DNA of 28,147 nt from an uncultured Sutterella sp. (GTDB taxonomy: Bacteria > Pseudomonadota > Gammaproteobacteria > Burkholderiales > Burkholderiaceae_F): NCBI GenBank assembly GCA_934255515.1, contig CAKQON010000017.1, forward strand, positions 1 to 28,147, read 5' to 3'. Below the pieces are notes generated by a model. It was given only the letters and a program-made list of their open reading frames with translations, was not told the origin of the DNA and did no database searches. Positions 13,541 through 14,774 of this stretch are shown here, piece by piece (within the stretch, counting starts at the first letter, position 1; every line of letters begins with the position of its first letter). The translations under genes were made by a program, and so were the position numbers.

Positions 13541-13570
13541 TTGCAGAAGGCTTCTCATCTCGAGTAGAAT
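13541..13570 (+). promoter_or_regulatory. Promoter of the rpsP operon
   Basis: TTGCAG (13541-13546) and TAGAAT (13565-13570) are 18 bases apart. The -35 lies within the palindrome CTTCTGC-TT-GCAGAAG (13534-13549), which could instead be a weak end signal for modB. The leader to rpsP would be about 128 bases. Confidence 0.55.
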
Positions 13571-13638
13571 CGCGCATTCTGTGAGACCGGGAAAGCAGTT
13601 CAAAGCCGCTCGCCCGGAATTGCACCAAACTTTCGCAG

Positions 13639-13674
13639 AACCGCTTCTCCCCGGGACGGGGGTTCGGTTTTGAT
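13639..13674 (+). terminator. Terminator-like hairpin in the rpsP leader
   Basis: AACCG (13639-13643) pairs with CGGTT (13665-13669), and an inner CCCC pairs with GGGG. TTTT follows. It lies between the promoter at 13541-13570 and the rpsP start, so it would act as an attenuator rather than a gene end. The stem is interrupted and the T-run is short. Confidence 0.35.
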
Positions 13675-13704
13675 TCAACGCACCAATGATTTAAGAGGTA
13701 ACTC

Positions 13705-13986
13705 ATGGTCATCATTCGTCTCGCCCGTGGCGGCGCCAAGAAGCGTCCCTTCTACTCCCTCAACGTTTGCGACTCCCGCTGCCGTCGTGACGGCCGCTTC
13801 ATTGAGCGCGTCGGCTTCTACAACCCGATGGCTGCCGGCCAGGCTGTCAAGCTCCAGGTCAATCTCGAGCGCGTCGCTTACTGGCAGAGCAAGGGCGCCC
13901 AGCTCTCCGATACGGTTGCCCGTCTCGTCAAGGAATTCAAGGCTCAGCCGGCTCCTGCCGCTGAAGAACCCGCCAAGGCTGAATAA
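13705..13986 (+). CDS. rpsP: 30S ribosomal protein S16
   Basis: This 93-residue S16 assembles early into the 30S body. The N-terminal [17 protein letters not shown] and the following [11 protein letters not shown] are signatures of the family. The tail [11 protein letters not shown] is a low-complexity extension common in proteobacteria. AGAGG lies seven bases before the ATG. It is the first gene of the usual rpsP-rimM-trmD-rplS operon. The next gene is unusually far away, more than 190 bases, with strong RNA structure between. Confidence 0.98.
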
Positions 13987-14001
13987 TTTCAGTTCTTGAA
14001 G

Positions 14002-14036
14002 GGGACGGGATGCTTCCCTGAAGCATCTTTTGTCCC
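14002..14036 (+). terminator. Strong hairpin with T-run after rpsP
   Basis: GATGCTTC (14009-14016) and GAAGCATC (14020-14027) form a perfect 8-bp stem with a three-base loop, followed by TTTT. GGGAC (14002-14006) and GTCCC (14032-14036) can close it further. It lies 16 bases past the rpsP stop and would let rpsP be made in excess of rimM-trmD-rplS. The short T-run suggests partial termination. Confidence 0.55.
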
Positions 14037-14042
14037 GCTAGA

Positions 14043-14188
14043 AAACCCCGCATCTCTTTTCGGTGCGGACTCCCGCGAAGCTTCCCGCTCGCAGATCGTG
14101 CCTCTCGTGTCAAAGCACATTGGATCAGCACCAGGGAAGGTCGCCAAAATGGAGTCCGGTATCTACGCCAGAGGAAAATGCGGGGTTT
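14043..14188 (+). ncRNA. Candidate rod-shaped structured RNA between rpsP and rimM
   Basis: Complementary blocks nest in order and give about 41 pairs over 146 nt. AAACCCCGCAT (14043-14053) pairs with ATGCGGGGTTT (14178-14188). GGTG (14062-14065) pairs with CGCC (14166-14169), one wobble. CGGACTCC (14066-14073) pairs with GGAGTCCG (14151-14158). GCGA (14075-14078) pairs with TCGC (14141-14144). CTTCCC (14081-14086) pairs with GGGAAG (14134-14139). GATC (14094-14097) pairs with GATC (14123-14126). GTGC (14098-14101) pairs with GCAC (14115-14118). The closing stem includes an ATG that could start rimM. I do not recognise it as 6S, SRP RNA or a known ribosomal leader. It may be a leader element or a processed small RNA. 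Confidence 0.45.
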
Positions 14189-14222
14189 CGCTTGTCTGCA
14201 ACATTCCCATTCTTCATTCGCT

Positions 14223-14774
14223 ATGACAGATTCTGACATCTCCCGGAGCGATTCCCCGGACGAACTCATCGAGCTCGGCCGCACCGCCGGCGCCTACGGT
14301 TTCAAGGGCTGGGTCCGCATTCAGCCTGAAGGTACGGGCGAGGTGCTCCAGAAAGTGCGCGACTGGGTGCTTGTCGACCGCTTCGGCCTCAAGACGCCCG
14401 TGCATGTGAAGGGACTTCGCGTTCACGGCACGGGACTCATCGCCAAATGGGACGGATGCGAATCGAAGGAAGCGGCCGATGCCGTCCGCGTGAAGGTCGG
14501 CGTCCTCAGGAAGGCCTTCCCGGCTGCCGGCAAGGATGCCGTCTGGGCGATCGACCTTGAAGGCGTTCCCGCATTCAACCGCGAGGGAAGGGAATTGGGC
14601 GTCATTGCGGGCGTGAGCTCCAACGGCGCGCAGGATCTCTTCGTCATTGAATATGAGGATGAAGCGGGCGAAAGGAAGCAGTTCCTCATCCCGAACGTGA
14701 AGGACGTCTACGTGCTTGAACTCAACCCTGAGGAAAAGCGCGCGGTCTTTGACTGGGATCCGGCCTGGCGCTGA
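14223..14774 (+). CDS. rimM: Ribosome maturation factor RimM
   Basis: RimM binds S19 and helps mature the 30S head. The protein has the N-terminal RimM barrel (IELGRTAGAYGFKGWVRI, near residues 16-33) and a C-terminal PRC-barrel ending in the typical DWDPAWR. From the ATG at 14223 it is 184 residues, normal for the family, but no Shine-Dalgarno precedes this ATG. An in-frame ATG at 14178 would add 15 residues and has GAGG three bases upstream, yet it lies inside the closing stem of the RNA fold at 14043-14188. Start choice is therefore open. trmD follows after 20 bases. Confidence 0.93.
   Translation: MTDSDISRSDSPDELIELGRTAGAYGFKGWVRIQPEGTGEVLQKVRDWVLVDRFGLKTPVHVKGLRVHGTGLIAKWDGCESKEAADAVRVKVGVLRKAFPAAGKDAVWAIDLEGVPAFNREGRELGVIAGVSSNGAQDLFVIEYEDEAGERKQFLIPNVKDVYVLELNPEEKRAVFDWDPAWR

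What the first reader, a model, noticed from the sequence alone, without database searches (positions are those of the whole stretch)
14043..14188. Rod-shaped RNA of about 146 nt between rpsP and rimM
Seven complementary blocks nest in strict order, from an 11-bp closing stem to an apical loop, about 41 pairs in all. Chance would rarely place 11-bp, 8-bp and 6-bp perfect helices in nested order within one spacer. The rpsP-rimM gap is usually short, and here it is over 190 bases. The closing stem includes an ATG with a nearby GAGG that is in frame with rimM, while the alternative rimM ATG has no ribosome binding site. It could be a ribosomal-protein or RimM-responsive leader, or a processed small RNA with 6S-like architecture.
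Basis: partly seen in the sequence, partly recalled or inferred. Interest (0 to 1): 0.72.

Follow-up and report, generated by a model that had tools for sequence, protein, structure and literature searches.

The report
New rod RNA between rpsP and rimM
A rod-shaped RNA with two fixed loop sequences sits between the genes for ribosomal protein S16 and the ribosome-assembly factor RimM in Sutterella and three related genera; it matches no described RNA family that was searched and looks like a built-in, possibly regulated, stop sign for transcription.

Summary
The rod is real: window 14043-14188, -63.3 kcal/mol, z -4.77, no shuffle of 200 as stable. No Rfam match at E<=10. Relatives lie directly 3' of rpsP in 34 of 36 genomes of four genera of one family (the two misses gave no rpsP hit), but not in 14 loci of 12 other genera or 28 other order loci read. 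A tree fits one origin. Stems covary, while unpaired GUGUC (apical loop) and GUAUCUA (3' bulge) occur in 35 of 35 loci. In three genera the closing stem runs into a T-rich tract; in the fourth a separate terminator-like hairpin follows. rimM starts soon after. Best reading: an intercistronic attenuator gating read-through from rpsP into rimM, probably through a factor bound at the two motifs. S16 or RimM are candidates by linkage, since trmD-rplS left the operon in one genus while the rod stayed. A trans-acting sRNA or a constitutive terminator remain possible. 6S is rejected: a diverged 6S-like RNA lies at the zapA locus in three of the genera. Termination, switch and ligand are inferred, not shown.

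The parts
13705..13986 (+). rpsP (ribosomal protein S16), upstream neighbour in every locus
   Evidence: Pfam PF00886, 1.3e-24; element directly 3' of rpsP in the 34 carrier genomes in which rpsP was found
14001..14036 (+). P0: hairpin between the rpsP stop and the rod
   Evidence: predicted fold (no shuffle control); folds of the 58 nt from the stop also show hairpins in the 10 g1 and 7 g9 loci that the script read; it failed on L012 and three g2 loci; role unknown
14043..14188 (+). rod-shaped RNA element
14043..14053 (+). P1 5' strand (closing stem; 5' half of terminator-like stem)
   Evidence: CCCCGCA invariant in 12 of 12 aligned Sutterella sequences
14062..14065 (+). P2 upper 5' strand GGUG, pairs with 14166-14169 CGCC
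   Evidence: GUG invariant in 12 of 12
14066..14072 (+). P3 5' strand CGGACUC, pairs with 14152-14158
   Evidence: both-sided changes at 6 of 7 pairs in 18 sequences of two genera
14098..14101 (+). P5 5' strand GUGC, pairs with 14115-14118 GCAC
   Evidence: invariant, so no covariation evidence
14106..14111 (+). apical-loop motif CGUGUC (GUGUC 14107-14111 in all four genera)
   Evidence: GUGUC in 35 of 35 loci
14152..14158 (+). P3 3' strand GAGUCCG
14159..14165 (+). 3'-side bulge motif GUAUCUA
   Evidence: 35 of 35 loci
14178..14188 (+). P1 3' strand
   Evidence: P1 has compensatory changes in genera g2 (three sequences) and g9
14186..14194 (+). T-rich tract after P1 (weak in the window: 5 T in the first 8)
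   Evidence: 4-7 T of 8 in the 13 g1 sequences
14223..14774 (+). rimM, downstream neighbour in every locus (in G068 behind an insertion)
   Evidence: Pfam PF24986 and PF01782
14795..15559 (+). trmD (not linked to the element in genus g9)
   Evidence: Pfam PF01746
15637..16035 (+). rplS (L19; not linked to the element in genus g9)
   Evidence: Pfam PF01245

Best explanation
It is a lineage-specific, cis-acting intercistronic attenuator in the rpsP-rimM(-trmD-rplS) transcript. Transcription enters from rpsP. The nascent RNA folds into a rod whose closing stem, followed by a T-rich tract (or, in genus g16, a separate hairpin), ends many transcripts before rimM, so S16 is made in excess over RimM. 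The two invariant unpaired motifs (GUGUC in the apical loop, GUAUCUA in the 3' bulge) are the likely binding site of a factor, most probably S16 or RimM, that sets how much polymerase reads through. Shown: the predicted fold, its covariation, the invariant motifs, the fixed place and the terminator-like 3' ends. Inferred: termination in vivo, regulation, and the ligand.
For: Fold beats all 200 shuffles. Covariation: 11 of 32 pairs with both-sided changes, 0 of 500 shuffles as high, slid controls 1-3 pairs (window plus 11 Sutterella genomes); P3 across two genera (covariation score 0.394 against 0.186 shuffled, 0 of 500; but the number of pairs with both-sided changes was reached by 40 of 500 shuffles and further pair types by 133 of 500); genus g9 independently, 19 of 40 predicted pairs, including the closing stem. 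GUGUC and GUAUCUA in 35 of 35 loci while the surrounding stems change; the g2 and g9 forms were recognised partly by these motifs, but no rpsP-rimM spacer read in the four genera lacked them. Place: g1 12/12, g2 5/5, g9 8/9, g16 9/10; the two misses, G066 and G071, gave no rpsP hit. Each of the 22 genomes with an R1 match has one match, 21 of them at rpsP, as for a single-operon element. P1 followed by a T-rich tract in the 13 g1 sequences, in 5 of 5 g2 loci and 7 of 8 g9 loci; a separate hairpin plus T-run, seen by eye, in 9 of 9 g16 loci. In the 27 of 35 loci where the script found both, the last T-tract before rimM lies 9-59 nt from the ATG (this tract is not always the one after the stem), little room for a promoter. 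P1 forms with probability 0.92-0.95 in the 13 g1 sequences. In B. subtilis a terminator downstream of ylqC lies inside the rimM operon (PMC10100781, passages seen; that ylqC lies between rpsP and rimM is partly recalled).
Against: No expression data. A conserved antiterminator was not found: the alternative 5' hairpin in g1 (CCGCA/UGCGG) dominates the truncated transcript in only 3 of 13 sequences, and no systematic search for one was made in g2, g9 or g16. In the window the T-rich tract is weak, and the simple terminator scan did not list P1 (it allows loops of 3-8 only). That scan found no sigma70-type promoter in 13560-14300, but none for rpsP either, so it is weak evidence. In G068 an IS605-type insertion splits P1 from its T-tract and rimM starts 1.57 kb beyond the rod, so such control cannot work there in the usual way. 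No rRNA mimicry: similarity of the apical hairpins to 23S is within shuffles (98, 277 and 249 of 300 for g1, g16, g2; an earlier run gave 1 of 200 for g1 because masked bases had lowered its control).
Confidence: 0.5

Rival explanations
1. A trans-acting small RNA made from the 3' UTR of rpsP: the rod is cut out of, or ends, the rpsP transcript, and GUGUC and GUAUCUA are seed loops that pair with other mRNAs.
For: Two short invariant unpaired motifs inside a stable rod that ends in a terminator-like structure. The element stays with rpsP even where an insertion separates it from rimM. It follows rpsP in the 34 genomes read.
Against: Equally strict order with rimM next downstream. No promoter-like site in window 13560-14300 (weak, none was found for rpsP either).
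Confidence: 0.25
2. A constitutive partial terminator and 3' stabiliser that only sets the S16:RimM ratio; no ligand.
For: Terminator-like end in all four genera; P1 forms with probability 0.92-0.95 without any ligand.
Against: A plain terminator does not need a 110-170-nt rod with two unpaired motifs kept in 35 of 35 loci while the stems are rewritten.
Confidence: 0.2
3. A diverged or relocated 6S RNA.
For: Rod shape; RF00013 matches 29 of 31 genomes of the other genera at E<=0.001 (25 over the cut-off) but 0 of 36 genomes of the four carrier genera.
Against: In 13 of 18 carrier-clade zapA loci printed (g1 6 of 7, g2 3 of 3, g16 4 of 4, g9 0 of 4) a 6S-like RNA, recognised by eye by the motifs of the sister-genus 6S, lies after zapA; five of these fold to -66 to -73 kcal/mol. 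The window rod is no more like them than shuffles in 4 of 5 comparisons, the fifth 9 of 300.
Confidence: 0.02
4. A metabolite riboswitch (for example for SAM, the TrmD substrate).
For: Aptamer-like conserved bulge and loop.
Against: No Rfam match at E<=10; one R1 match per genome; trmD is unlinked in g9 while the element stays.
Confidence: 0.03

Closest known systems
S16 r-leader of Flavobacteria (Eckert and Weinberg 2020, PMC7247131; abstract, section 5 and passages seen)
   Same: Conserved structured RNA in an operon with rpsP and rimM, narrow lineage, presumed autoregulation
   Different: Described as directly upstream of rpsP; here the element follows rpsP and precedes rimM. Its alignment was not compared here
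L19 leader of Firmicutes and Flavobacteria (named in PMC7247131; Rfam accession RF00556 recalled)
   Same: RNA control of a gene of this group
   Different: No Rfam match at E<=10; rplS is unlinked from the element in g9
B. subtilis rimM operon with terminator T1 downstream of ylqC (PMC10100781; passages seen)
   Same: An internal terminator lowers transcription of the rimM part
   Different: No conserved rod or loop motifs are described in the passages seen
6S RNA (RF00013)
   Same: Rod with closing stem, similar length in g9
   Different: No model match; different locus and motifs; 6S-like RNA present separately at zapA in g1, g2, g16

Membership tests
Covarying structured RNA (any class) | Compensatory changes above controls | tested here: met
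   with controls; two of five measures not beyond shuffles; pair counts, no controls
Transcription attenuator | Intrinsic terminator-like end inside an operon before a downstream gene | tested here: met
   P1 plus T-rich tract in g1, g2 and 7 of 8 g9 loci, separate hairpin in 9 of 9 g16 loci; sequence feature only, T-tract weak in the window
Transcription attenuator | Mutually exclusive antiterminator | tested here: inconclusive
   5' hairpin dominant in 3 of 13 truncated g1 folds; other genera not tested
r-protein leader | Ligand r-protein binds the RNA | not testable with these tools
   needs a binding assay
r-protein leader | Lies upstream of the regulated r-protein gene | tested here: not met
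   follows rpsP; rplS is downstream in the window and in the 2 g1 and 4 g16 loci checked, but unlinked in g9; not read in g2
S16 r-leader (Flavobacteria) | Directly upstream of rpsP | tested here: not met
   element lies 3' of rpsP in 34 of 34 genomes read
6S RNA | RF00013 match | tested here: not met
6S RNA | The only 6S-type gene of the genome | tested here: not met
   6S-like RNA at zapA in 13 of 18 printed carrier-clade loci, judged by eye
Any Rfam 15 family | Match at E<=10 | tested here: not met
   no match in window 13950-14300
3'-UTR sRNA | Discrete transcript | not testable with these tools
   no expression data

The most novel reading that the evidence does not exclude
A new class of ribosome-assembly attenuator: the rod senses free S16, RimM or unassembled 30S material through GUGUC and GUAUCUA and thereby sets RimM supply to the state of 30S assembly. 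A bolder form: both loops pair with free 16S rRNA, since GUAUCUA is complementary to E. coli 16S 789-795 and CGUGUC to 326-331, though chance alone could give this.
Probability: 0.25. Interest if true: 0.78.

Novelty: new variant of a known kind. Interest (0 to 1): 0.6.

Why it matters
[quoted passage not shown] older E. coli work on translational control of rimM and trmD is recalled, not checked). This element gives a concrete, mutable candidate for such control, with two short motifs to test, and would add an RNA family that Rfam 15 does not list. On the way it also turned up 6S-like genes in these genera that the current Rfam model misses.

Tried and rejected
6S RNA: suggested by a striking complementary distribution, rejected after reading the zapA locus, the place of 6S in sister genera; the pattern reflects the reach of the RF00013 model.

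Ligand L19 or TrmD with their own genes as the regulated targets: disfavoured because trmD-rplS moved away as a pair in g9 (rplS near trmD in 8 of 9 g9 loci) while the element stayed with rpsP and rimM.

Two-state switch by the 5' hairpin: dominant in only 3 of 13 truncated folds, so not claimed.

rRNA mimicry: a first 23S comparison gave 1 of 200 shuffles for the g1 hairpin, but its control held masked bases; repeated on the 23S gene alone it gave 98 of 300 (g1), 277 (g16), 249 (g2) and 149 (g1 bulge), so nothing. E. coli 16S has no sense copy of either motif.

rimM start inside the closing stem: not conserved.

G068 looked at first as if the element had stayed with rpsP without rimM; two searches showed an insertion instead, so that argument was weakened.

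No single model recovered all four genera: g2 and g9 were found by reading rpsP-rimM spacers. Absence elsewhere therefore rests on the R1 search (150 order genomes), the R2 search (399), 14 family spacers and 28 order spacers; a diverged form could be missed. Nine further non-carrier-genus or g9 loci were fetched, of which only the three g9 ones were read.

Papers searched: 'rpsP rimM attenuat', 'Sutterella riboswitch' (31), 'ribosomal leader Weinberg S16' (49), 'trmD operon rimM L19 translation' (50), 'Sutterella noncoding RNA conserved secondary structure' (87, none), 'rpsP-rimM intergenic' (88), 'rpsP rimM sRNA terminator' (89), 'betaproteobacteria 6S RNA Sutterella' (90, none). No title or abstract start in these listings described this element. 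Listings only were seen, apart from the abstract, section 5 and passages of PMC7247131 and passages of PMC10100781 and PMC10931766.

Full report
Observation. The spacer between rpsP (13705-13986) and rimM (14223-14774) holds a single nested rod at 14043-14188. Its fold has 49 pairs, -63.3 kcal/mol, z -4.77, and none of 200 dinucleotide shuffles is as stable. Rfam 15 gives nothing in the window at gathering scores except six tRNAs and nothing at E<=10 in 13950-14300. Pfam confirms rpsP, rimM, trmD and rplS.

Distribution. A DNA search of 61 genomes matched all 12 genomes of this genus (g1) at rpsP-rimM. A covariance model R1, built from the window and 11 of those genomes, matched 22 of 67 family genomes: 12 of 12 in g1, 9 of 10 in a second genus (g16), and G014 (E 0.04), which is not at rpsP and is discarded, as is G128 (E 0.093) in the order search. 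Reading spacers by hand showed diverged forms in genus g2 (5 of 5) and genus g9 (8 of 9). The two misses, G071 and G066, gave no rpsP hit. In 14 loci of 12 other genera of the family the gap is -16 to 58 nt without the element (genera g3 and g5 could not be read). Of 29 loci from other genomes of the order (of 58 non-carriers searched), 28 could be read and neither motif occurs in the gap, which is at most 103 nt; in L168 the rimM hit lies elsewhere. Model R2, built from g1 and g16, matched 6 of 399 order genomes, all g1 or g16. A tree of joined S16 and RimM (35 rows) puts the 21 carriers on one side of a branch (support 91/90, 88% of bootstrap trees), which fits one origin.

Structure. In Sutterella: P1 CCCCGCA/UGCGGGG, P2, a 3' bulge GUAUCUA, P3 CGGACUC/GAGUCCG, a variable internal loop, P4, and P5 GUGC/GCAC with the loop CUCUCGUGUCMAA. 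With that structure given, 11 of 32 pairs show both-sided changes against a shuffled mean of 4.5 and 1-3 in slid controls. P1 and P5 hardly vary in this genus and say nothing there, but P1 shows compensatory changes in g2 (three sequences, a few pairs broken) and g9. Across g1 and g16, P3 has both-sided changes at 6 of 7 pairs; two of the five whole-structure measures were not beyond shuffles (40 and 133 of 500), the other three were. GUGUC and GUAUCUA are present in 35 of 35 loci, window included; the g2 and g9 forms were recognised partly by them, but no spacer read in the four genera lacked them. In g1 and g16 a second pairing of the apical region (GUGU with GCAC) is possible, so the exact loop there is open. 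In g9 the stretches folded are 164-172 nt and form one rod each.

3' end. In 13 g1 sequences 4 to 7 of the first 8 bases after P1 are T. In 5 of 5 g2 loci a run of seven T begins within two or three bases of P1, and in 7 of 8 g9 loci a T-rich tract follows; the exception is G068. In 9 of 9 g16 loci the element is followed by a separate hairpin with a T-run, judged by eye. rimM starts soon after: 9-59 nt from the last T-tract in the 27 of 35 loci where the script found both, a tract that is not always the one after the stem. No sigma70-type promoter was found in window 13560-14300, but none for rpsP either. So rimM probably depends on read-through from rpsP; this is an inference.

Which genes matter. 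trmD and rplS are downstream of rimM in the window and in the 2 g1 and 4 g16 loci checked for both; in g2 trmD follows rimM and rplS was not read. In g9 trmD sits elsewhere with rplS near it (8 of 9 loci), while the element stays between rpsP and rimM. The genes common to the loci are rpsP and rimM. G068 has an OrfB_IS605-type gene inserted between P1 and its T-tract, with rimM starting 1.57 kb beyond the rod.

6S test. RF00013 matched 29 of 31 genomes of the non-carrier genera (25 over the cut-off) and 0 of 36 of the carrier genera. That looked like replacement. In six non-carrier loci read, a zapA-like ORF, judged by eye, precedes the 6S gene; PF05164 confirms it in G026 but matched neither G036 nor G091. 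ZapA loci of the carriers (26 loci fetched, 19 printed, 18 of them carriers) show a 6S-like sequence by eye in 13 of 18: g1 six of seven, g2 three of three, g16 four of four, g9 none of four. Rfam did not list 6S at E<=5 in the 12 of these 13 that were given to it. The rod is therefore a different RNA, at least in those three genera.

Mechanism. The most economical reading is an attenuator that ends many transcripts after rpsP, with a factor at GUGUC and GUAUCUA modulating it. S16 and RimM are preferred as ligands by linkage alone. That E. coli bS16 interacts with cruciform DNA is stated in PMC10931766 (passage) and is only suggestive. Against it stand the missing antiterminator, the weak T-tract of the window and the absence of expression data. 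The sRNA and constitutive-terminator readings are kept with probabilities 0.25 and 0.2.

Novelty. No Rfam family matches it, and no title or abstract start in the listings of eight paper searches describes it. The nearest known element, the Flavobacteria S16 leader, lies upstream of rpsP (PMC7247131). I rate it a new variant of a known kind, interest 0.6.

Noticed in passing
zapA loci L199-L201, L203, L205, L206, L208, L211-L215, L217: 6S-like RNA, judged by eye, downstream of zapA in Sutterella and two related genera; Rfam did not list it in the 12 of these 13 loci given to it. Not seen at zapA in four g9 loci or in G004 (L218)
   Followed up: partly
L171 (G068), rpsP-rimM interval: OrfB_IS605-type gene inserted between the closing stem of the rod and its T-tract
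   Followed up: partly
L074, L077, L078, L080, L082, L085, L086, L088, L109-L111 (genus g9): trmD and rplS moved together out of the rpsP-rimM operon; ORFs upstream of trmD in L109-L111 look by eye like hscA-fdx-iscX (names recalled, not searched)
   Followed up: partly
window 14001-14036: A second hairpin (P0) between the rpsP stop and the rod; hairpins are also predicted there in the g1 and g9 loci read, without a shuffle control
   Followed up: partly
window 14106-14111 and 14159-14165: CGUGUC and GUAUCUA are complementary to E. coli 16S 326-331 and 789-795, with no sense copies; could be chance
   Followed up: partly
g16 loci L048-L056, between the P4 and P3 3' strands: A further conserved pyrimidine stretch like UUUCCUCUUU, not seen in g1
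   Followed up: no
G004:C1 372589-375027 and 630017-631899: Partial or fragmented 23S rRNA matches beside five full ones
   Followed up: no
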